DNA from: an uncultured Mycoplasmatota bacterium
Lineage (GTDB): Bacteria; Bacillota_I; Bacilli_A; RF39; UBA660
DNA length: 36,845 nucleotides
NCBI GenBank assembly: GCA_946498975.1
Contig: CAMMQC010000015.1
Coordinates: 1 to 36,845 of the forward strand
Direction of reading: 5' to 3'
Positions 6,819 through 36,111 of the stretch are shown here, piece after piece. Position numbers and translations under genes: made by a program. Position 1 is the stretch's first letter. The number at the start of each line of letters is the position of its first letter. Below the pieces are notes generated by a model. The model did not search any database, was not told the DNA's origin, and was given only the letters and a program-made list of their open reading frames with translations.

Positions 6819-7406
6819 CTATTTTACTACACCAGATACTGTACATTCTGCAACTGGAGTATCATTATAAGTATTATTACTAGTAGCATCATATAAACTA
6901 ATCTTACTAGTTCCTGGTGTCATAGTTGAAATTGCTTGATAGTTAGTTTCTCCAGTTGCTGCTTGTTCTTCAACTAAATCACCATCAAGGCCGTTTTCAT
7001 TTAATACACCAAATCCATTATTAGCATCATCAGTCATCTGAACATAATACTGATAACTAGCAGCACCACTTGCAGCATTATTATAGATAATTACAAAACT
7101 TTCATCTGAATAGTCAGAATTAAATGGACTTTCGTGAGAACCACTTTCAAGAGCTACTGTATTAGTTGAAACAGCTAAACATTCTCCATAAGATGGCATA
7201 ACATCAGCAGCATAATCACCATTTACAAAACTTAGTCTTACAGCATTAGCATATTGTTGAGCAGTTGTAACAAAAGTATCACGTCTTGCTCCTCTAATAT
7301 AACCAGACATAGCAGTAATTGCTAAAGTCATTAATATAGCTAAAATAATTATAACTGCTAATAACTCAATTAAAGTAAATCCTTTCTTGTTCATTCTTTT
7401 TTTCAT
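6819..7406 (-). CDS. Type IV prepilin-like protein
   Basis: This is a pseudopilin or minor pilin precursor. It has a short basic leader (MKKRMNKKG) cut by prepilin peptidase before Phe, with the key Glu at +5 (GFTLIELL), then a hydrophobic helix serving as membrane anchor and assembly spine. The remaining ~155 residues are polar, Ser/Thr/Asn-rich, with two Cys that could form a disulfide. The frame extends upstream to MEVIE, but that first ATG lies inside GGAGGTTATT, the ribosome binding site, so translation should start at 7406 (195 residues). It has its own strong promoter and terminator. No secretion ATPase, platform protein or peptidase gene is in the window. Confidence 0.85.
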   Translation of the reverse strand: MKKRMNKKGFTLIELLAVIIILAILMTLAITAMSGYIRGARRDTFVTTAQQYANAVRLSFVNGDYAADVMPSYGECLAVSTNTVALESGSHESPFNSDYSDESFVIIYNNAASGAASYQYYVQMTDDANNGFGVLNENGLDGDLVEEQAATGETNYQAISTMTPGTSKISLYDATSNNTYNDTPVAECTVSGVVK

Positions 7407-7434
7407 TTCAATAACCTCCATATCTTACTTTTAC

Positions 7435-7463
7435 ATCATAGCAAATATTTATCTAACTGTCAA
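7435..7463 (-). promoter_or_regulatory. Strong promoter of the first prepilin-like gene
   Basis: Consensus TTGACA, 17 bases, then TATGAT with an extended TGC before the -10, on the minus strand. The -35 overlaps the stop codon of the upstream prepilin gene. The -10 is 29 bases before the chosen start. Confidence 0.8.
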
Positions 7464-7966
7464 TAAATATTTGTAATAGTATATCCATTTAACGTCTCTC
7501 CCAAAACAGGAGTTTCTATATCTAAATCACTTCCTGTAGTAACTCTTCTTCTAGCATTTTCTTTATTTAAATCATTTCTTGTAGTCAAAGGTATCCCCCT
7601 TGTATTACCATCATAATTTTCAATAATAGTGGAAGCATATTCATAAGTACTTCCTGTTCTAGCTATCACTACATATGACTTATCTAAATCATACTCTCCG
7701 CCTTCCGGACCTTCTGTAAATTCAGATGTATCTAATGTTCTTAAAAATATAACTACACAATTACCATCAGTTGGCAATTTAATATTAGTATTACTTCTAA
7801 CTTCATATTCCGCTAAAGTAATCATTCTCTTAGCATCTTCTACATAGGTATCTTGCTTATTTCTATCAATTACACTCATAACATTAGGAACTGCAACCAA
7901 CATAATAAGTGATAATATTAAAATAGTTGCCAACAATTCTATTATTGTAAAACCTTTTCTATTCAT
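7460..7966 (-). CDS. Type IV prepilin-like protein
   Basis: A second pseudopilin precursor of 168 residues. The leader is only MNRKG, followed by FTIIELLA with Glu at +5 and a continuous hydrophobic helix to about residue 28. The C-terminal domain is soluble with a single Cys. It precedes the other prepilin gene by about 50 bases but each has its own promoter. Leader and helix are diagnostic; whether it is a pilus subunit, a competence pseudopilin or a secretion pseudopilin cannot be decided without the assembly genes. Confidence 0.83.
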   Translation of the reverse strand: MNRKGFTIIELLATILILSLIMLVAVPNVMSVIDRNKQDTYVEDAKRMITLAEYEVRSNTNIKLPTDGNCVVIFLRTLDTSEFTEGPEGGEYDLDKSYVVIARTGSTYEYASTIIENYDGNTRGIPLTTRNDLNKENARRRVTTGSDLDIETPVLGETLNGYTITNIY

Positions 7967-12826: not shown

Positions 12827-13951
<1,125 letters not shown>

Positions 13952-13967: not shown

Positions 13968-15245
13968 CTAACCTCTTCTTCTTTTTTGATATGCTGTTGG
14001 ATCTTTAGCAAGTGTTTCATTCATATTATTATTAATATCATAAACTACACCATCATGCAATAACCCGTCCCTATCATAATAATAAAATGTTTCATTATCT
14101 TTTAATCCTATAATAGCAGAACCAATAGCACTAGTTACTTCTACATAACTATGTGTATCTTCACTAGATAAAGCTTTATTTATTACTTCAAATCTTATAT
14201 TTTGGATTTTCCCATCTTCAAAAGTCATAATACTTACTTTACTTCCAATACCAACTGTATCATTAGAATGTGATGTTATAATTCTAACTTTATTTAATAA
14301 TCTATTAAGTTTATCCAATCTCGTTCTAACACTATAAATATTATAATAAACACTAGGAACTTTAGTAACATTACTATTGTCTATCTCTATAATAGTACCA
14401 AAATATCGAGCTTTTTTTGTTTTTCCCTCTTCTTTATATGTATATATTTCTTCAATTCTATCGCCTATTTTTTTTGCAAATAATCTGCTCGCAAGTTTAC
14501 TACTAGCTTTTATTTCAGTTTTAGGATTAACAACATCTTCATCTACAATCCTAAATTCTTTAATAGTATCTTCACCATCTATTAATTTAATAATAGACCC
14601 AGGCATTATTCTTTTTTCATATTTTTTAAATTTTAATAAAGCATTAACTAAACGCTTTTTTTCTTCCTGTAATAAATTATATTGGCTTAAGGTAATTTCA
14701 TTCTCTTTACAGTCAATATCTTCTTTTACTATCTTTCTAGTTGCAAGTCTTTCTGACATAGGTCTAGAAATAATAAAATCTACATCATTTTTTGTCTTTC
14801 TAAATACTTTTAAAACTTTTCCAGTAATAGTTAAGGTATCTTTTATACCTCTTACTTTAACAGAATATCGAAAATTATCTCCTTCTTTTTTACCTTTCAC
14901 ACTGCTACCAAGTAAACCTTTAACACTAACATAACCGTTATCTTGATTAAATGAATCACTCTTAAGACCTATTTCGTTCTCTGCTAAGGTATATATTTCT
15001 TCAACATTTTCTTTATCAAACCTAATCTTAAATTTAGTACCATAATCTATAATTGTATCATCTGCTCTTTTAACAAGTTCACTTTCTTCAAGTATTCTAC
15101 GTAAATATTCTATCTGTTCTTCTTTCTTCCTTCTATCATTACGTGATGTTACCTCATCAAAGTAAACAGTAGCATTATCTATATCTTCTTCCAACTCTTT
15201 AATTTTATCTCTCAAAGCTTTAACTTGTTCTGGTATTAATATCAT
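13968..15245 (-). CDS. Protein with three tandem GreA-like units
   Basis: The 425 residues look like three copies of a helical segment plus a GreA/GreB C-terminal (FKBP-like) domain. Unit 1: coiled coil at about 5-60, domain 64-147 ending GLLGSSVKGKKEGDNF. Unit 2: helix 183-212, domain 212-289 with SKLASRLFAKKIGDRI. Unit 3: helix 303-322, domain 328-405 with VGIGSKVSI, SAIGSAIIGLKDNETF. In GreA the same place reads S(P)xGxALxGkkxGD. GreA stimulates RNA polymerase to cleave backtracked transcripts, using two acids at its coiled-coil tip; equivalent acids are not certain here, so the activity is open. It is first after a good promoter and lies 25 bases before tgt. No ordinary GreA of this size (about 158 residues) has three units. 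Confidence 0.6.
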   Translation of the reverse strand: MILIPEQVKALRDKIKELEEDIDNATVYFDEVTSRNDRRKKEEQIEYLRRILEESELVKRADDTIIDYGTKFKIRFDKENVEEIYTLAENEIGLKSDSFNQDNGYVSVKGLLGSSVKGKKEGDNFRYSVKVRGIKDTLTITGKVLKVFRKTKNDVDFIISRPMSERLATRKIVKEDIDCKENEITLSQYNLLQEEKKRLVNALLKFKKYEKRIMPGSIIKLIDGEDTIKEFRIVDEDVVNPKTEIKASSKLASRLFAKKIGDRIEEIYTYKEEGKTKKARYFGTIIEIDNSNVTKVPSVYYNIYSVRTRLDKLNRLLNKVRIITSHSNDTVGIGSKVSIMTFEDGKIQNIRFEVINKALSSEDTHSYVEVTSAIGSAIIGLKDNETFYYYDRDGLLHDGVVYDINNNMNETLAKDPTAYQKRRRG

Positions 15246-15272
15246 ATAAATTCCCCCTTTAATGACTAGATT

Positions 15273-15301
15273 ATGATACCATAGAAAAGCTTATAAGTAA
15301 A
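15273..15301 (-). promoter_or_regulatory. Promoter of the triple GreA-like gene
   Basis: TTTACT, 17 bases, TATCAT on the minus strand, 27 bases before the start, with AAAGGGGGA as the ribosome binding site. Confidence 0.6.
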
Positions 15302-15304
15302 GAA

Positions 15305-15724
15305 TTATTTACTTCTTCTATTTTCATTTATATAGTCATAACTCTTTGACTCTACAAATATTAATCTCCTCTTAGCATCCATTACCTTTTTCTGAAGTTC
15401 TAAAGACATCTCTTTTAGAGTTTTTTCTAAAAGGTAAGCTCTATATTTATTTTTAACTAATTGTCTGAATTTCTCTATTTCATTTAAGGCCTCATGATAA
15501 GCAGTACCTGTATCATCATCACTATTTAAATAGAAGTTTACCATCTTTAATAGTTTTAAATATTTTTTATAGACTTTATTACTAATAAACACTTTTTGTA
15601 AATCCAAACTATATATAAATACTTTATTATCATGAGATTTAATAGTTAGCTCTTTTCCTAAAGTTAAATCTCCATTATAAGTAAAACTCTTTTCTATTAT
15701 TAAATAATTATTCACCTGAATCAT
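15305..15724 (-). CDS. Hypothetical protein downstream of trmD
   Basis: The 139-residue protein of unknown family has a beta-rich first 50 residues (NYLIIEKSF, KVFIYSLDLQKVF) and two long charged helices in the rest, probably a coiled coil. There is no signal peptide. Its start overlaps the end of trmD by 17 bases, so it is coupled to the ribosome-maturation operon rimM-trmD. In most Firmicutes rplS follows trmD; here this unknown gene takes that place. Confidence 0.72.
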   Translation of the reverse strand: MIQVNNYLIIEKSFTYNGDLTLGKELTIKSHDNKVFIYSLDLQKVFISNKVYKKYLKLLKMVNFYLNSDDDTGTAYHEALNEIEKFRQLVKNKYRAYLLEKTLKEMSLELQKKVMDAKRRLIFVESKSYDYINENRRSK

Positions 15725-18623: not shown

Positions 18624-19832
18624 TTATTTTGAATACGTTTTCATTTTATTTATAAAATCATTATTTTTACTTATAGTCTCTTCATCAAAAGATTGACCAT
18701 ACATATTAAATTCATTCTCATATAAACCTGTTAAAAAGATACAATAATTTGTAAAATTATCTTTTCCTAAATTATCATTAATAAGAGAAAGGCTATTATT
18801 GATAGCAGAAGAGTCAAATAATTCCCTATAATTATCTAATAAAGGATTAACTAAAGGAAGATAAAAGTCATAGGCACTCTTATATGAAATATCATTATTA
18901 TTAGCTAAATCAAAGATATAAATATTATCTTTTCTTAATCTTTTAAATAAACTTCTCGCTTTTTCCTGTGTTCTAAATTCATTAAAGATACTATAATCTT
19001 TATTTATTATAAAACTACAATGTTTATCATTCATTTCACTTACATGTATAAGTTCATGTAAAAGATTTATATCAAGACATCTATCATGATATTTTTTTAA
19101 AAGTGGAAATGAAATAAAAGTCTTAGAATATTTTTTAGATAGTGATGTAATGGCAGTTACATCACTATCAAAATCTTCTTCAAAATAAACTATTTTTCTT
19201 GCAAGTAGTATTTTCTTATAAAAAGGTATATCCCCTAATCTATCTAAGATATTTTTACCAAAGATAGAGTTTTTTATAACATTTCTCTCTAATACTTTCT
19301 CTTGCCTTTTTAAAAAGTCTATACAATCATCTAGTTTTTCTTCATCTAATAAAGGAATAATTCCTATTCTTTTACAAGTATCTATATAATCTTGTTGTAA
19401 TTCTAAAAGTAAGTCTCTTACTTCATTGTCATAATCTAAATATTTTTTATATTTTTTATCAAAAGCATCAAATCTAAGTCCTAGAATAACTTCTTTATTT
19501 TTATTAAATACATCATCACTAATATTTAACAGTTCTTTTAAATATCTAAGAGTATAATCATCTATTTCATCTTGTAACTTTTCTCCTTTACTCATATAAT
19601 CATCCATTAATGATTTATAATATTTTAATTCATCTAAACTACTATCTAAATTATACAAGCTTTCATAAGTAACATCAGGAGTTGAATCAAAGAAGTAAAA
19701 GGCATCTTTAATTCTTGTAGCGATTAAGTCTTTAAAACTTTTATGATAGGAACTAGCGATTAAATCTATTAGATAATCTTGATACTCTAAAAATCTCTTA
19801 TTAGGATTTAATAATCTATCTAAGTCTTGCAT
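18624..19832 (-). CDS. Uncharacterised protein with HELIH zinc-peptidase motif
   Basis: The 402-residue protein is largely helical and charged. Near residue 264 it has INLLHELIHVSEM, an HExxH zinc site in a hydrophobic frame, followed about 24 residues later by FNEFRTQEKA, which could supply a Glu as third ligand (gluzincin pattern). No signal peptide or transmembrane segment was seen, so it is cytoplasmic or leaderless. No family is recognised over the full length. Its ATG overlaps the obg stop (TAATG), making it a translationally coupled partner of the Obg GTPase gene. It may be a peptidase; activity is inferred from the motif only. Confidence 0.7.
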   Translation of the reverse strand: MQDLDRLLNPNKRFLEYQDYLIDLIASSYHKSFKDLIATRIKDAFYFFDSTPDVTYESLYNLDSSLDELKYYKSLMDDYMSKGEKLQDEIDDYTLRYLKELLNISDDVFNKNKEVILGLRFDAFDKKYKKYLDYDNEVRDLLLELQQDYIDTCKRIGIIPLLDEEKLDDCIDFLKRQEKVLERNVIKNSIFGKNILDRLGDIPFYKKILLARKIVYFEEDFDSDVTAITSLSKKYSKTFISFPLLKKYHDRCLDINLLHELIHVSEMNDKHCSFIINKDYSIFNEFRTQEKARSLFKRLRKDNIYIFDLANNNDISYKSAYDFYLPLVNPLLDNYRELFDSSAINNSLSLINDNLGKDNFTNYCIFLTGLYENEFNMYGQSFDEETISKNNDFINKMKTYSK

Positions 19833-27073: not shown

Positions 27074-28867
27074 TTAATTCATCGCTCTTTTAAATAGTCT
27101 TTCTAAATCATAATTACTATATGTAATAATTGTTGGTCTACCATGAGGACAAGTGAATGGATTATCACAACACCTTAAGTTATCTAAAAGTATTTTAGCA
27201 GTGTCTAAATCTAGATAATCATTCGCTTTTATACTCATTTTACAAGCCATAGTTGATGCTGTTTTATAGATGAATTTCTCTTTATCAAATTCACCTTTTT
27301 CAAGAGTGATAGCAATTATCTTTTCTATCGCTTCCCTCTCATATCCTTCAAAAAACCAAGTAGGATGACTTCTAACAATAAAAGTATTATCACCAAACTC
27401 TTCTAAAGAGATACCTATACTTTTTAAAATATCCATATGTTCTTTAATTCTAATAAATTCATCTTTAGGATATTCTAATCTAATAGGTACTAATAAATCT
27501 ATAATTTTATAATCATCTTTTAATAGGGCATTTAAAACCTTCTCATAGTTAATTCTCTCTGCTGCAGCATGTTGATCTATTATATACATACCACTAGAGT
27601 TCTCTGCTATTATATAAGTCTTATGAACAATACCTACAGGTATCATTTCTTTAATACGATAATTAGTCTCTTCTTCTTTTTCCTCTTCTACTACTTCTTC
27701 TGTCTTAGTACCAGTTATTTTATTATCATTATCAAAATCAAAAGATAACTCTTCTAAATTAGGAGATGTTTCTTTAACAGGTACTTCTTCATCATCTATC
27801 TCATAATTAATAGTATTAAGAGGGAGGGAATCTTCTACTTCATAAATAGTATTTAAATCTCTAACATTAGCATGAGGAACAAGTAATATCTCTTTTAATT
27901 TAGAACTGATTACTTTAGTAATTAACTCTTTTAAACTCTCCATCTTAGAGAACTTAATATCCATCTTTTGAGGGTGTATATTAATATCTATAAGGATAGG
28001 ATCTACATCAATATTTAAAACTATCATTGGAAACTTATCTTTAGGTATATAGGTATGATAACAGTCTATTAAACATCTATTTAAATCTAAATTCTTAATT
28101 ACTCTACCATTTACTAATGTCGTAATAACATTTCTTGAAGTTTTTGCTATTTCTGGATAACCAATATAACCAGATATTACATAATCGTCATTTTCACCAT
28201 TTATTTCTATCATCTTTTTAGTAACATCTATACCATAAACAGCATAGATTACTTTTAAAAGATTACCATCTCCACTTGTATTAAGAAGTTCTTTATCATT
28301 ATTAGTTAAAACAAATCTAATAGATGGATATGATAGAGCCATTTTATTAACATATTCTATTATTAAAGCTAGCTCTGTATAAAGATTCTTTAAATACTTT
28401 AATCTTACAGGGGTATTATAAAATAAATCTCTTACTTCAATAGTAGTACCTACGCTTAAATCACTATTTTCAACACTTTCTATAACACCACCATTTAAAG
28501 AGATACTTGTTCCTACTCCATCTTTACTAGTTTGTAAATAAATGTGAGAAACTGAAGCGATAGATGGTAGAGCTTCGCCTCTAAAACCTAAAGTGCCTAT
28601 ATTAAATAAATCATCTAAGTCTTTTAATTTACTAGTAGCATGACGTGAAAAAGCAAGAGTAGCATCTTCTTTATTCATACCGATACCATTATCACTTACT
28701 ACTATTTTCTTAGTACCAGAGTCTATTAGATTTATCTTAATCTCAGTAGCCTTAGCATCAATAGAGTTTTCTACTAATTCTTTAACAACATTTAAACATC
28801 TTTCTACTACTTCTCCTGCTGCAATTTTATTAGCAAGTATTTCATCCATTACTTTAATAGTTCCCAT
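27074..28867 (-). CDS. mutL: DNA mismatch repair protein MutL
   Basis: MutL couples mismatch recognition by MutS to strand removal. The 597 residues have the GHKL ATPase motifs ELVENSIDA, DNGIGM, ATSK and GFRGEAL, a linker of about 100 acidic residues, and a C-terminal endonuclease domain with DQHAAAERINYEK (the DQHAx2Ex4E nicking motif) and CPHGRPT. Endonuclease motifs fit organisms without MutH. Its ATG overlaps the stop of the prepilin-like gene (TAATG). Confidence 0.97.
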   Translation of the reverse strand: MGTIKVMDEILANKIAAGEVVERCLNVVKELVENSIDAKATEIKINLIDSGTKKIVVSDNGIGMNKEDATLAFSRHATSKLKDLDDLFNIGTLGFRGEALPSIASVSHIYLQTSKDGVGTSISLNGGVIESVENSDLSVGTTIEVRDLFYNTPVRLKYLKNLYTELALIIEYVNKMALSYPSIRFVLTNNDKELLNTSGDGNLLKVIYAVYGIDVTKKMIEINGENDDYVISGYIGYPEIAKTSRNVITTLVNGRVIKNLDLNRCLIDCYHTYIPKDKFPMIVLNIDVDPILIDINIHPQKMDIKFSKMESLKELITKVISSKLKEILLVPHANVRDLNTIYEVEDSLPLNTINYEIDDEEVPVKETSPNLEELSFDFDNDNKITGTKTEEVVEEEKEEETNYRIKEMIPVGIVHKTYIIAENSSGMYIIDQHAAAERINYEKVLNALLKDDYKIIDLLVPIRLEYPKDEFIRIKEHMDILKSIGISLEEFGDNTFIVRSHPTWFFEGYEREAIEKIIAITLEKGEFDKEKFIYKTASTMACKMSIKANDYLDLDTAKILLDNLRCCDNPFTCPHGRPTIITYSNYDLERLFKRAMN

Positions 28868-29328
28868 TATTCTACCTCACAACTTGCATCTTTTGTTAAT
28901 CTTTCAATCCCTGAAATTGAATTAGAACAAGCAGGGCTTTCGTATCCTGAACATTTTAAACAAGCAGAATAATCTATATCCATATTATAACCTGTATTAT
29001 TATTTCTTTTAACAATAGCATAACTTTCTAAATTACATGTTTTACTTGATTCTCTTGGGTCTTGTAAATTATCTATATATCCTTCACAAACTAATTTTTC
29101 AACATCAACTACTAGTGATTCTCCCTCATTTGGAATAGAACCAGTATGATCTATTAAATAGTTAGTAACACCACTAGTAATATTTTTCTCAAAGTCTTCA
29201 TAAGTAGTGCTTCTAGCTTGATTTAAATATTTTGATACTGATATATAAGCAAGAGTTATTAATATGCCTAATATAACGAGTACAACAAGTAATTCTACTA
29301 CTGTAAATCCTCTTTTATTTGTTTTCAT
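28867..29328 (-). CDS. Type IV prepilin-like protein inside the repair operon
   Basis: A short leader MKTNKRG is followed by FTVVELLVVLVILGILI, with Glu at +5 and a hydrophobic spine: a pseudopilin precursor of 153 residues. The C-terminal domain carries six cysteines, likely disulfide-bonded. The frame extends upstream, but AGGAGG lies 6 bases before the ATG at 29328. The start is inside the uvrC 3' end (14-base overlap) and the stop overlaps the mutL start, so it is translated as part of a repair operon. That placement is odd for a surface appendage protein. Confidence 0.82.
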   Translation of the reverse strand: MKTNKRGFTVVELLVVLVILGILITLAYISVSKYLNQARSTTYEDFEKNITSGVTNYLIDHTGSIPNEGESLVVDVEKLVCEGYIDNLQDPRESSKTCNLESYAIVKRNNNTGYNMDIDYSACLKCSGYESPACSNSISGIERLTKDASCEVE

Positions 29329-31093
29329 TTTCATCCTCCTCATGCAAGACATTATAGAGATTATTTGCAACAGTATCTCCTACTATTTCACTTAACTCTT
29401 CTATACTTGCTTCTTTCATTTTTTTCATTGAACCAAATTTCTTTAATAATTCTTTTCGCCTAACTTCTCCTATTCCAGGAACTAAATCTAAGTAACTAGA
29501 AAGTAGTCCTTTACTTTTAATATTACGATGATAAGTAATAGCGAAACGATGAACTTCTTCTTGAATTTTAGATAGATAAAGGAATAAGTTACTATCACTT
29601 TTAATATCTAATACTTTATAATTACTATCTATAACAGTATTAGTTCTATGATGTGAATCTTTCTTAAGTCCTATTATAGGAATAGATAAATTTAAACTAG
29701 AAAGTATCTCTTTACAAACATTTACTTGTGTTTCTCCTCCATCCATAACTATTAAATCAGGTAATACTTCATTATCCATGATAGCACGATAATACCTTCG
29801 ATATAAGACTTCTCTCATCGCTCCTAAATCATCTTTAACATCAGTACTTATCTTATATTTACGATAATCATTCTTTAAGGGTTCAAAGTCACGAAATACT
29901 ACCATTGCTCCTACATAATAAGTTCCAAATAAGTGAGAGTTATCAAAGCTTTCCATTCTTGAAACAGAATCTACCCCAAGAAGAGTCTTTAACTCATTTA
30001 AAGCTTCTATTTTTTTATTATCATCTTTCTTTAAAGTCTCTAACTCTTCATTTAAAACTACTTTAGAATTCTCTTCTGCTAAATCAACTAATTTCTTTAA
30101 CTCTCCTCTTTTAGGAACATGTACTTTAACTTTTAAATATTCACTAAGTAATTCAGCATTTAAGGTATCTGGTATTAATATATTGTGAGCAAGAATATTT
30201 TTTTCATAGAATTTTATGATATATTCTTCCATGTCATCAACGACATTATCTAGAGTCTGCAATGTTTCATGATGTCTACCAAAAAGTATTCCTTCTCTTA
30301 TAAAGAAGACTGTTATAGATAAGTAATTATCTACTACGGTATAGTTAAAGATATCAAAGTTATAATTTTTCTTTAAGTCTATCTTTTGTTTAGTTAAAGT
30401 TATATCTATATCAGTTAACATCTCTCTTAACTCTAAAGCTTTTTCATAATTTAAAGCATTACTAGCTTTTTCCATTTCTTTTGTAATTTTTTCTTTAATA
30501 AAACTACTATTTCCTTTAAGAAAGCTTGTTATCTCATCAGTCATAGATTTAATAGTAGCATCATCTATATCTTTAATACAGTAGCCTAAACACTCATTTA
30601 TATGATAATATAAACACTCTTTCTTAGGTAATTTCTCACACTTTCTTAATGGATATAAACGATTAATCATATTAACTGTTTTACGTGCTGCGGTTACATT
30701 AGGGTAAGGTCCAAATAATTTATGATCTTTTTTCTTTTTCTTAACATTTCTAACTACTCTAAGTCTAGGATACAATTCACTCGTAAGTTCAATATATGGA
30801 TAACTTTTATCATCTTTAAGTAAAATATTATATTTAGGGTCATATTTTTTAATTAGGTTTATCTCTAAGATTAAACTCTCTAACTCACTATCAGTAACGA
30901 TATATTCAAAGTCATCTATATCTTGTACAAGCATTGCTGTCTTACCAGTTACATTACCTCTAAAATAACTACTAACACGTTTCTTTAAGTTCTTAGCTTT
31001 TCCAACATAGATAATATAACCATTTTTATCTTTCATCTGATAACTTCCAGGTAGTTCTGGAACAAGTTTTAATTTTTCCTTAAAGTCTTTCAT
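29315..31093 (-). CDS. uvrC: Excinuclease ABC subunit UvrC
   Basis: UvrC makes both incisions in nucleotide excision repair. The ~592 residues have the GIY-YIG domain (GSYQMKDKNGYIIYVGKAKNLKKRV), a UVR motif (NALNYEKALELREML), the RNase H-like endonuclease domain (SVSRMESFDNSH, LPDLIVMDGGETQ) and C-terminal helix-hairpin-helix motifs (LVPGIGEVRRKELLKKFGS). The frame reaches a GTG four codons earlier, but the ATG at 31093 is the likely start. A -35/-10 pair and a perfect inverted repeat lie just upstream. Confidence 0.95.
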   Translation of the reverse strand: MKDFKEKLKLVPELPGSYQMKDKNGYIIYVGKAKNLKKRVSSYFRGNVTGKTAMLVQDIDDFEYIVTDSELESLILEINLIKKYDPKYNILLKDDKSYPYIELTSELYPRLRVVRNVKKKKKDHKLFGPYPNVTAARKTVNMINRLYPLRKCEKLPKKECLYYHINECLGYCIKDIDDATIKSMTDEITSFLKGNSSFIKEKITKEMEKASNALNYEKALELREMLTDIDITLTKQKIDLKKNYNFDIFNYTVVDNYLSITVFFIREGILFGRHHETLQTLDNVVDDMEEYIIKFYEKNILAHNILIPDTLNAELLSEYLKVKVHVPKRGELKKLVDLAEENSKVVLNEELETLKKDDNKKIEALNELKTLLGVDSVSRMESFDNSHLFGTYYVGAMVVFRDFEPLKNDYRKYKISTDVKDDLGAMREVLYRRYYRAIMDNEVLPDLIVMDGGETQVNVCKEILSSLNLSIPIIGLKKDSHHRTNTVIDSNYKVLDIKSDSNLFLYLSKIQEEVHRFAITYHRNIKSKGLLSSYLDLVPGIGEVRRKELLKKFGSMKKMKEASIEELSEIVGDTVANNLYNVLHEEDENENK

Positions 31094-34074: not shown

Positions 34075-35715
34075 CTAAGAAATCACATAAATATTTTCAA
34101 CCGTCCCATCTCCAGACGTAAACCCGTTTTCAGTTATCACATTGATAACTGGACGAACGGCACTGTAGTAAACTACATAGTTGTAAACGAGGTAATCACT
34201 CTCATTCCACACATAAGCACTACCATAATAGAAACCGGCCGGCGACATTGTCCAATAATACATTTCTGATTCTCCTGGATTTAAATAACTATTTCCTACT
34301 ACTCCTAAACTTTCTCCTGCTAATACTAATTCATCTGCTGTTATCAGCCCTGCTTTTAATCTATAAGAACCTCCATAACTTTCACTTGTACTAGGGCATT
34401 TTAATGTTGGTGTTACATCCTCTTGCATTTCTAAGCCCATTAATTTCCCATATATTGGGGCTAATCTATCAAAACTTGCAAAGACATTTCCTCCCATCAT
34501 TGATTCTTCTCTATAGCCACTACTGTCACTACAAAATCTTCCACCTGTTACCATACTATCATATATTGTATCTCCTAAAGCGTTCTCATACCATGTATCT
34601 ACTTCTCTTTTTATAAAACTATCTGTTTCATTTGTATCTCTATCATATGTATATCCTGTATATTTAGGGTCATTATACTCTAAATTATATGATGTCATCC
34701 CCACTGCAAAAGAATTTACTAAATCTGTATTTGTAGGATTGACACTCGTTCCATTATAAATTAATCTTAAGCTTCCATCTCCATTTACTCTTACTATCTT
34801 CCAGTACATCTTATCTCCCTTAGATGCTAATAGCACTCTATTACTTTCACTACAACTACTATTATATTCTTGGCAAGACGCTAAACTCTGAAAAAATCTA
34901 CTACCATAATTATACACATAATAATCCTCTGTATATTCTCCAAATTGAACATTATTATTTGTTACATTCCCTCTAAAGTAGTAACTAACACCATCTTCAT
35001 CTTCCATGCTATATAAACCATTTGTTACTTGATTTTCATCTGTTGCATATTGGGGTTGCCCATCATCAGATACTCCTGATAAATACACACCATTACTTGC
35101 ATAATTAAACATATTAGTCTTTTCTTCTTGTACTTCATTATCTTCAAGTATTTGTTTTAATGCTAAAGACTTTTGTTTCCTATCATAACTAGTTACTACT
35201 ATCTTACTCTTATATTCTTTTCCTTGAGCACTATTATCCGCATCATTATCTAACCACATCCATAAAGTATATGTAACAGTATCTTCTGGTTCTAGTGTTT
35301 CTTCACTCTTTATATTAAATGTACCTGTTCCATAACTACTTACTTTAACTACTCCACTATCATATCCTTGATTATTAGTTAGTCTCATCTTTAAATAAGA
35401 GTTAGCTAATGTATTAGTAGCCTCTTCTTCTAAAGATACATGATAATATGCATTTATATTACCAGTATTAGTTATAGTAAATGTATAAGGTGTAGTCTTT
35501 TGACCTTGAGTATCTGTCATAGGAGCTACATTATCTAAATTAATATAATTACCATCAGTAAAGTCAACCTTTAATATCCCTGCTGTTAAAGTAATCTTCT
35601 TATCACCTTCTATAGTCATAGTAAGTAGAGCATAACTAGCACCTATTAATGCTATTACACTTATTACTATTGTTACTATTACTAATACTATATATTTTTT
35701 TCTTGTCTTATCCAT
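34075..35715 (-). CDS. Surface protein with TasA-like N-terminus and C-type-lectin-like C-terminal domain
   Basis: The 546 residues start with a membrane or signal segment (KYIVLVIVTIVISVIALIGASYALL) followed by a beta-sandwich region at about 35-180 that looks like the SipW-substrate TasA/camelysin fold (LTAGILKVDF, YTFTITNTGNINAYYHVSLEE). A middle part with YWKIVRVNGDGSLRLIYNG and paired Cys leads to a C-terminal domain ending YYWTMSPAGFYYGSAYVW...AVRPVINVI, the formylglycine-enzyme/C-type-lectin-like fold common in gut Firmicutes surface proteins and in retroelement target proteins. Its ATG follows the prepilin stop by 3 bases. The tail has a codon pattern and base composition unlike the rest. 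The organism probably shows it outside the cell; its ligand is unknown. Confidence 0.8.
   Translation of the reverse strand: MDKTRKKYIVLVIVTIVISVIALIGASYALLTMTIEGDKKITLTAGILKVDFTDGNYINLDNVAPMTDTQGQKTTPYTFTITNTGNINAYYHVSLEEEATNTLANSYLKMRLTNNQGYDSGVVKVSSYGTGTFNIKSEETLEPEDTVTYTLWMWLDNDADNSAQGKEYKSKIVVTSYDRKQKSLALKQILEDNEVQEEKTNMFNYASNGVYLSGVSDDGQPQYATDENQVTNGLYSMEDEDGVSYYFRGNVTNNNVQFGEYTEDYYVYNYGSRFFQSLASCQEYNSSCSESNRVLLASKGDKMYWKIVRVNGDGSLRLIYNGTSVNPTNTDLVNSFAVGMTSYNLEYNDPKYTGYTYDRDTNETDSFIKREVDTWYENALGDTIYDSMVTGGRFCSDSSGYREESMMGGNVFASFDRLAPIYGKLMGLEMQEDVTPTLKCPSTSESYGGSYRLKAGLITADELVLAGESLGVVGNSYLNPGESEMYYWTMSPAGFYYGSAYVWNESDYLVYNYVVYYSAVRPVINVITENGFTSGDGTVENIYVIS
34100..34260 (-). other. Candidate DGR variable repeat at the 3' end of the surface-protein gene
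   Basis: From 34153 to 34233, 23 of 27 consecutive codons are NNY (TTC TAT TAT GGT AGT GCT ... TAC TAC AGT GCC GTT CGT), as expected when AAY codons of a template are randomised at A. G+C is about 40% against about 30% in the gene upstream, with codons such as TCG, CCG, GCC and CTC that neighbours avoid. The reverse transcriptase and template repeat are not in this window, so the assignment stays tentative. Confidence 0.45.
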
Positions 35716-35718
35716 ACT

Positions 35719-36111
35719 TTACTCCCCATCCTTAGTTTCATAACCTGCTTTATCACATACTAGATGTGCTTTATATAAATAATCTTTAGAACTTGTCTTT
35801 TCTACTTCTACATAACTCTTAGTAGTATTACAATCATTATCATTAACATCTTTTATCATATCAATATATTCTTCTAAAACTAGAGCACTTAGTAATACTC
35901 TAGTATTTTCCCCTACTTCTTTAGGTAGGTAACTTCTATAATCTGCAAAGTAATCTTTACTTGCTAGTATCATCATCTTTTCGCTAGTATTATAATATTC
36001 TAAATTACTAGATGTAATTAACTTATTTGCACTAAATAATACTAATGTAACTAATATACCTAATATTATTATAGTAGCTAGCATTTCTATTAAAGTAAAT
36101 CCTTTACTCAT
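35719..36111 (-). CDS. Type IV prepilin-like protein
   Basis: This 130-residue pseudopilin precursor starts MSKG followed by FTLIEMLATIIILGILVTLV, with the +5 Glu. The rest is a compact domain with two Cys (DCNTT, LVCDK). Its ATG overlaps the stop of the VUT gene (ATGA), and the surface-protein gene follows by 3 bases, so the three are one operon. The pairing with a large exported protein may mean the two act together at the cell surface; that is inference. Confidence 0.83.
   Translation of the reverse strand: MSKGFTLIEMLATIIILGILVTLVLFSANKLITSSNLEYYNTSEKMMILASKDYFADYRSYLPKEVGENTRVLLSALVLEEYIDMIKDVNDNDCNTTKSYVEVEKTSSKDYLYKAHLVCDKAGYETKDGE

What the first reader, a model, noticed from the sequence alone, without database searches (positions are those of the whole stretch)
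13968..15245. A protein made of three GreA-like units
The helix-plus-FKBP-like-domain unit of GreA/GreB occurs three times (domains at residues 64-147, 212-289 and 328-405), each with a GSxVxI-like start and an S-x-L/I-x-x-x-x-x-G/A-K-K-x-G/N-D/E end. Ordinary Gre factors have one. It has its own promoter and heads an operon with tgt. A three-armed protein might bridge RNA polymerases, act as an anti-Gre competitor, or bind something other than the secondary channel.
Basis: partly seen in the sequence, partly recalled or inferred. Interest (0 to 1): 0.72.

Follow-up and report, generated by a model that had tools for sequence, protein, structure and literature searches.

The report
Two-Gre protein with a plugged-in domain
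A gut bacterium's gene beside the tRNA-modification gene tgt encodes an unusual relative of the transcription factor GreA: two GreA-like modules, the second carrying an extra GreA-type globular domain at the tip of its hairpin, in a gene that related bacteria lose and reshuffle domain by domain.

Summary
The 425-aa ORF (minus strand) has three GreA/GreB-type FKBP-like domains, each recognised by profiles, and the AlphaFold model significantly matches only Gre-family structures. But it is not three repeated arms. It is two Gre modules, with a third FKBP-like domain inserted in the loop of the second module's hairpin: cutting out ~82 residues (206-291) restores an unbroken match to the second module of two-Gre relatives, and the model aligns residues 179-406 to whole Gfh1 around that insert. 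The host is a Candidatus Onthousia-type Bacilli MAG that also has a canonical greA. This form is confined to the genus (19 of 35 genomes), always just upstream of tgt; 13 genomes show a clean empty site. Relatives elsewhere in the bacterial family have one, two or three Gre units, mostly next to tgt; one has eight units in four adjacent genes. FKBP domains are swapped between species by recombination while the gene stays under purifying selection. The catalytic acidic tip is missing, so it is probably not a cleavage factor. Most likely it binds RNA polymerase as a non-cleaving, Gfh1/Rnk-like competitor or scaffold. That function is inferred, not shown. No published multi-Gre protein was found.

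The parts
13968..15245 (-). Whole ORF, 425 aa: two Gre modules with a third FKBP-like domain inserted in the second hairpin
15078..15245 (-). Residues 1-56: hairpin of module 1 (helices 5-25 and 31-56), N-terminal motif MILIPEQVK; no GDLSEN acidic tip; tip shortened by 16 residues relative to deeper orthologues
   Evidence: model; alignment; tip listing
14796..15062 (-). Residues 62-150: FKBP-like domain 1
   Evidence: (aligned to Gfh1 over 4-149)
14616..14699 (-). Residues 183-210: first helix of the second hairpin (ITLSQYNLLQEEKKRL...)
14373..14615 (-). Residues 211-291: FKBP-like domain 2, inserted in the loop of the second hairpin; found only in this genus
   Evidence: single-domain Pfam match in own-genome search
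14289..14357 (-). Residues 297-319: second helix of the second hairpin (RLDKLNRLLNKVRII)
14022..14273 (-). Residues 325-408: FKBP-like domain 3, the most conserved domain; exists as two allele types (A: SAIG loop, B: SPLG loop) exchanged between species
13971..14021 (-). Residues 409-425: strongly conserved C-terminal tail (DP..YQKKRRG)
15273..15301 (-). Promoter-like site TTTACT-17-TATCAT with extended -10 TG, kept upstream of orthologues and absent from empty sites
15253..15260 (-). Ribosome-binding site AAAGGGGG
   Evidence: sequence
12827..13942 (-). tgt (tRNA-guanine transglycosylase), 25 nt downstream, the constant neighbour
15305..15724 (-). 139-aa ORF of unknown function upstream; directly abuts tgt in genomes with the empty site

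Best explanation
The gene encodes a non-cleaving Gre-family protein. Supported by sequence and model: two Gre modules in tandem; a third FKBP-like domain sitting where the tip of the second hairpin should be; no catalytic acidic pair; purifying selection; repeated loss and domain-by-domain exchange between species; linkage to tgt. Inferred: its globular domains, mainly domain 3, dock on the rim helices of the RNA polymerase beta' subunit as in Gre, Gfh1 and Rnk. The second hairpin cannot enter the secondary channel because it is capped. The protein therefore acts as a competitor or scaffold on elongating polymerase rather than as a transcript-cleavage factor, and presents extra, exchangeable FKBP-like surfaces to some other, variable partner.
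For: Three FKBP-like domains match Gre profiles. All 14 significant PDB matches of the model are Gfh1, GreA, GreB, Gre-family or Rnk chains (E 1.9e-6 to 6e-4). Gfh1 2eul aligns to model residues 179-406 over 141 of its 156 residues (Z 9.7) across the insert, and module 1 (4-149) aligns to Gfh1 3aoh (Z 10.2). An HMM of the second module of two-Gre relatives, built without this genus, scores 115.6 bits on the intact protein and 135-137 bits when ~82 residues at 205-291 are cut out (mean over all cut positions 107). Four further orthologues each gain about 20 bits the same way. Domain 1 corresponds to unit 1 of doubles and domain 3 to unit 2 of doubles; domain 2 has no counterpart. The tip lacks GDLSEN, whose D41/E44 are needed for cleavage (PMC7527559). 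Domain 3 keeps an S-[PAS]-[ILM]-G loop in all 18. dN/dS is 0.2-0.4. Window versus L006: 97-100% nt over the first 320 codons, 55-73% in domain 3, about 89-99% in the adjoining genes; L006's domain 3 is 90-98% identical to L016's.
Against: No binding or activity has been measured. The model is moderate (mean pLDDT 70.8, pTM 0.33, 18 sequences), so the relative placing of domains is unsure, and the rmsd of the Gfh1 match across the insert is loose (5.2-5.8). Gre residue S121, whose S121P change in E. coli GreA cost RNA polymerase binding, is by my alignment not a serine in domains 2 and 3, and domain 1 has lost the S-P. The polymerase rim-helix segment is the same in carriers of domain-3 types A and B, so polymerase does not explain the domain exchange. 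The partner might not be polymerase at all.
Confidence: 0.5

Rival explanations
1. Conflict-system reading: the protein guards or blocks RNA polymerase against phage takeover, or senses phage proteins; presence/absence and domain swapping reflect an arms race.
For: Sporadic presence at one site (19 of 35 genomes, at least 3 forced changes on the tree), domain-level allele exchange, polymerase site constant while domain 3 varies, and GreA/B-C domains described in bacterial conflict systems (PMC8195603).
Against: No defence-model hit with a believable score (one weak Cas6b2 match, E 0.009), no phage, plasmid or viral-contig relative, no effector domain, and a housekeeping neighbourhood. dN/dS averages well below 1.
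Confidence: 0.2
2. A tRNA or translation-linked factor: the Gre-type domains have been redirected to serve Tgt (queuosine insertion) or its regulation, not RNA polymerase.
For: Next to tgt in all ten multi-unit loci found outside the genus (one has an intervening divergent gene) and in most single-unit ones, with different genes upstream (queA or trmD-orf). dksA beside gluQ-rs in Shigella is a loose parallel (PMC3542578).
Against: tgt is kept without it in 15 sister genomes. No fold or motif link to tRNA binding was found. Linkage can be inherited position or operon convenience.
Confidence: 0.17
3. Three independent Gre arms in a row, as the first reader proposed (bridge between polymerases).
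For: Three domains, each preceded by a helix.
Against: The helices before domains 2 and 3 are halves of one hairpin by sequence (+20 bits on excision) and by model alignment.
Confidence: 0.06
4. A decaying duplicate with no function.
For: Lost several times in the genus.
Against: Intact in all 19 genomes, dN/dS 0.2-0.4, strongly conserved N- and C-terminal ends, conserved promoter-like site and ribosome-binding site.
Confidence: 0.03

Closest known systems
GreA/GreB transcript-cleavage factors
   Same: FKBP-like domain fold and profile (PF01272); helical hairpin before the globular domain; among the best PDB matches
   Different: Two modules plus an inserted third FKBP-like domain instead of one module; no GDLSEN acidic tip; scores far below curated GreA cut-offs; a canonical greA is present elsewhere in the genome
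Gfh1 (Thermus) and Rv3788, anti-Gre inhibitors
   Same: Best structural match for both modules; Gre fold without cleavage function
   Different: Gfh1 is single-module, has acidic tip residues and a long hairpin; no insert in the hairpin
Rnk (E. coli), short-hairpin polymerase binder
   Same: Short hairpin that could not reach the active centre; competes with Gre factors for polymerase (PMC4598747)
   Different: Single module; NCBIfam PRK05753 score 26.1 against a cut-off of 109
GreA/B-C domain proteins of predicted conflict systems (TPR, GreA/B-C and PIN; PMC8195603)
   Same: Gre C-terminal domain used outside a cleavage factor; patchy and fast-changing
   Different: No TPR, PIN or effector domain here; three FKBP-like domains and Gre hairpins instead
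Tandem Gre proteins of the same bacterial family (unnamed; found here)
   Same: LxPEQ N-terminus, two Gre modules, C-terminal YDIDN..DP.YQK tail, next to tgt
   Different: One, two or three units in series; none found outside this genus has the FKBP-like domain inside the hairpin

Membership tests
PF01272 GreA_GreB C-terminal domain superfamily | Whole-protein score over the Pfam gathering cut-off | tested here: met
   44.8 bits against 26.9, three stretches
PF01272 GreA_GreB C-terminal domain superfamily | FKBP-like fold closest to Gre structures | tested here: met
   Foldseek top 14 all Gre-family; VIA Z about 9.7-10.2
GreA/GreB transcript-cleavage factor | Curated score for the GreA family | tested here: not met
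   TIGR01462 56.8 bits against 139; other GreA/GreB models lower still
GreA/GreB transcript-cleavage factor | Acidic pair (D41/E44, GDLSEN) at the hairpin tip | tested here: not met
   Absent in all 18 aligned orthologues; present in the genome's own greA; function of the pair from PMC7527559
GreA/GreB transcript-cleavage factor | One hairpin plus one globular domain per protein | tested here: not met
   Two hairpins, three globular domains
GreA/GreB transcript-cleavage factor | Stimulates transcript cleavage by RNA polymerase | not testable with these tools
   needs biochemistry
Gfh1-type anti-Gre inhibitor | Gre fold that binds polymerase and inhibits it without cleavage | not testable with these tools
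   Fold match only
Gfh1-type anti-Gre inhibitor | Acidic residues at the hairpin tip (PMC4598747) | tested here: inconclusive
   Some orthologues have scattered D/E near the tip; the window protein's tip is shortened by 16 residues
Rnk | Curated score for the Rnk family | tested here: not met
   NF004396 26.1 bits against 109
Rnk | Hairpin too short to reach the active centre | tested here: inconclusive
   Module 1 helices 5-25 and 31-56 in the model; reach not measured
Known anti-phage defence system | Hit to a PADLOC model | tested here: not met
   Only Cas6b2 at E 0.009 with no passing stretch

The most novel reading that the evidence does not exclude
A lineage-specific family of modular Gre scaffolds: a Gre paralogue fixed beside tgt has grown by duplication (1, 2, 3, up to 8 units in a row) and, in this genus, by inserting an FKBP-like domain into the hairpin tip. 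That turns a channel-probing arm into a display platform whose FKBP-like domains are swapped between species like interchangeable specificity modules.
Probability: 0.35. Interest if true: 0.75.

Novelty: new variant of a known kind. Interest (0 to 1): 0.6.

Why it matters
Gre-family factors are described as one hairpin and one globular domain. Here the same parts are multiplied, and one hairpin is capped by another globular domain, which would block channel entry and separate polymerase binding from active-site action. The natural series of one, two, three and eight units at one locus, with species-level domain swaps and clean empty sites, makes it possible to ask what extra Gre domains bind, and whether bacteria use polymerase-surface proteins in conflicts.

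Tried and rejected
Single-sequence AlphaFold gave a useless model (pLDDT 38.7); the alignment-based model was used instead. Three separate arms rejected. Decaying pseudogene rejected. Phage, plasmid or viral origin: no relatives in viral contigs, phage or plasmid records. PADLOC and PHROGs gave only weak chance-level matches. The idea that domain-3 types follow polymerase variation was tested and not supported: the rim-helix segment of RpoC is shared by carriers of both types. Family-wide survey of what lies upstream of tgt: in about 80 sampled genomes only three had a Gre-like ORF nearby, so the locus is sporadic, not universal; some of these stretches were cut short by contig ends. Multi-Gre ORFs outside the bacterial family: none in a class-wide sample; of two long open frames flagged there, the one checked (L304) was a single canonical GreA gene. 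The 218-225 aa ORFs between orf139 and tgt in two basal genomes are not Gre-like. Literature searches found no multi-Gre protein, within an open-access library only.

Full report
Observation. Window 13968-15245, minus strand, is a 425-aa ORF starting with ATG. Pfam GreA_GreB hits it in three stretches (44.8 bits, cut-off 26.9), and NCBIfam greA in three stretches but far under its cut-off. In the own-genome search two of the domains (residues about 327-389 and 211-265) are found separately. Profiles of the three domains from 18 orthologues each match a canonical GreA profile (P 6.6e-12, 1.9e-6, 1.6e-6). So there are three Gre-type FKBP-like domains. The genome (1.5 Mb, close to Candidatus Onthousia, Bacilli, by the titles of related contigs) also holds a canonical greA with GDLSENADYDAAK (L001) and a second Gre-like gene with GDGWHDN (L002).

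Anatomy. The alignment-based AlphaFold model (pLDDT 70.8, pTM 0.33) has helices 5-25 and 31-56, an FKBP-like domain, a helix 186-210, a second FKBP-like domain, a helix 297-319 and a third FKBP-like domain. Foldseek's 14 significant PDB hits are all Gfh1, GreA, GreB, other Gre-family or Rnk chains. VIA-align places whole Gfh1 (141 of 156 residues, Z 9.7) on residues 179-406, i.e. across domain 2, and places Gfh1 again on residues 4-149 (Z 10.2). An independent sequence test used two-Gre relatives from other genera. In these the second module has helix 1 (ITxSQxxLLxxExxRL) followed after a short loop by helix 2 (RLxxIxKxL...IGS). An HMM of that module, built without any Onthousia protein, gives 115.6 bits on the intact window protein and up to 137.4 bits when 81 residues starting at 206 are removed; the mean over all removal positions is 107. 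Orthologues L014, L018, L021 and L011 gain about 20 bits in the same way. Domain-1 and domain-3 HMMs find units 1 and 2 of the doubles, whereas the domain-2 HMM finds nothing outside this genus. The protein is therefore a two-module Gre protein with an extra FKBP-like domain in the loop of its second hairpin. The helix pairing itself rests on the model and this homology, not on a solved structure.

Distribution. Orthologues occur in 19 of 35 genomes of the genus, all intact. Fifteen genomes with a readable tgt locus lack it; in 13 of these the 139-aa ORF runs straight into tgt, and in two an unrelated ORF lies between them. In a close relative (L173) the empty site joins AATAATTCT, through a short spacer, to CTTCTTTTTCT; the filled site has a promoter-like site and the gene between the same two ends. 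On a five-gene tree the presence pattern needs at least six changes, three forced by well-supported branches. In the wider bacterial family, Gre-like genes with an LxPEQ start have one unit (about 160-190 aa), two (about 300-370 aa) or three (about 515-570 aa, with hairpins in series). G395 (L125) has four adjacent genes with eight FKBP-like domains by the unit HMMs; Pfam sees at least six of them. All ten multi-unit loci outside the genus lie next to tgt, one of them with a divergent gene in between, and one (G452) with in-frame stops in its first half. Upstream neighbours differ (ruvAB-queA or trmD-orf). The trait is sporadic: three of about 80 surveyed tgt loci carry a Gre-like gene, and no multi-unit Gre was seen in the class sample outside the family.

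Evolution. dN/dS between orthologues is 0.2-0.4. The gene is a mosaic: the window and L006 are 97-100% identical at nucleotide level over the first 320 codons, drop to 55-73% in domain 3, and return to 84-93% after it, while the adjoining genes are about 89-99% identical. L006's domain 3 is 90-98% identical to that of L016, from which it differs elsewhere (about 40-70% in most blocks). L016 and L017 show the same pattern, and domain 2 of L010 and L012 resembles that of the otherwise distant L016. Domain 3 thus exists as type A (NIRVEVINKALSSEDTHSY) and type B (NRRVEIINQAVSTELNTDY). The polymerase rim-helix segment, where Gre domains dock, does not follow these types.

Function. Cleavage by GreA needs D41 and E44 at the tip (PMC7527559). 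This motif is absent from module 1 in all orthologues, and module 2's tip is occupied by domain 2. Domain 3 keeps an S-[PAS]-[ILM]-G loop; domain 1 has mostly lost the S-P and domain 2 the proline. The best inference is a polymerase-surface protein that cannot stimulate cleavage: a competitor or scaffold similar in kind to Gfh1 and Rnk, which displace Gre factors (PMC4598747). The exchangeable domains may face a variable partner; a conflict role is possible given the described use of GreA/B-C domains in conflict systems (PMC8195603), but nothing tested here shows it. The link to tgt is real in gene order; its meaning is open.

Expression. A TTTACT-17-TATCAT site with TG before the -10 lies 28-56 bases upstream of the start codon and is kept in orthologues. 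In this AT-rich region the scanner finds as many sites as in shuffled sequence, so the support comes from conservation, not from the scan. tgt follows after 25 bases without a terminator-like site.

Verdict. It is a new variant of a known kind, with an unusual architecture and unusual population genetics, and a function that remains to be tested.

Noticed in passing
window 18624-19832 (-): A 402-aa ORF with an HELIH motif (possible zinc protease) is 40-60% identical to its counterpart in L035 while most flanking genes are about 90% or more identical; it is duplicated in L047 and missing in some sister genomes, so this is a second variable spot.
   Followed up: no
L002 1183-1737 and L055 1306-1860: A second Gre-like gene with tip GDGWHDN overlaps the end of a helicase-like ORF (UvrD-type look); the pair is kept in another species of the genus.
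   Followed up: no
L177 2587-3264 (-), L178 1344-2000 (+): Two basal genomes of the genus carry an unrelated 218-225 aa ORF between the 139-aa ORF and tgt, so this site takes other inserts too.
   Followed up: partly
L125 7150-11296 (+): Four adjacent Gre-like genes (534, 341, 167, 307 aa), the last two overlapping by 4 bases, sit between queA and tgt with eight FKBP-like domains.
   Followed up: partly
L064 146-1357 and L065 193-1356: In genus g27 a 387-403 aa protein of unknown family sits between queA and the three-unit Gre gene in both genomes.
   Followed up: no
L040 5294-5776, L045 4069-5064, L174 3722-4204: Different extra ORFs are inserted between rimM and trmD in single genomes of the genus.
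   Followed up: no
window 6819-7966, 28867-29370, 34075-36111: Several ORFs clustered together in the protein comparison, some with the GFTxIExLATI pilin-type N-terminus.
   Followed up: no
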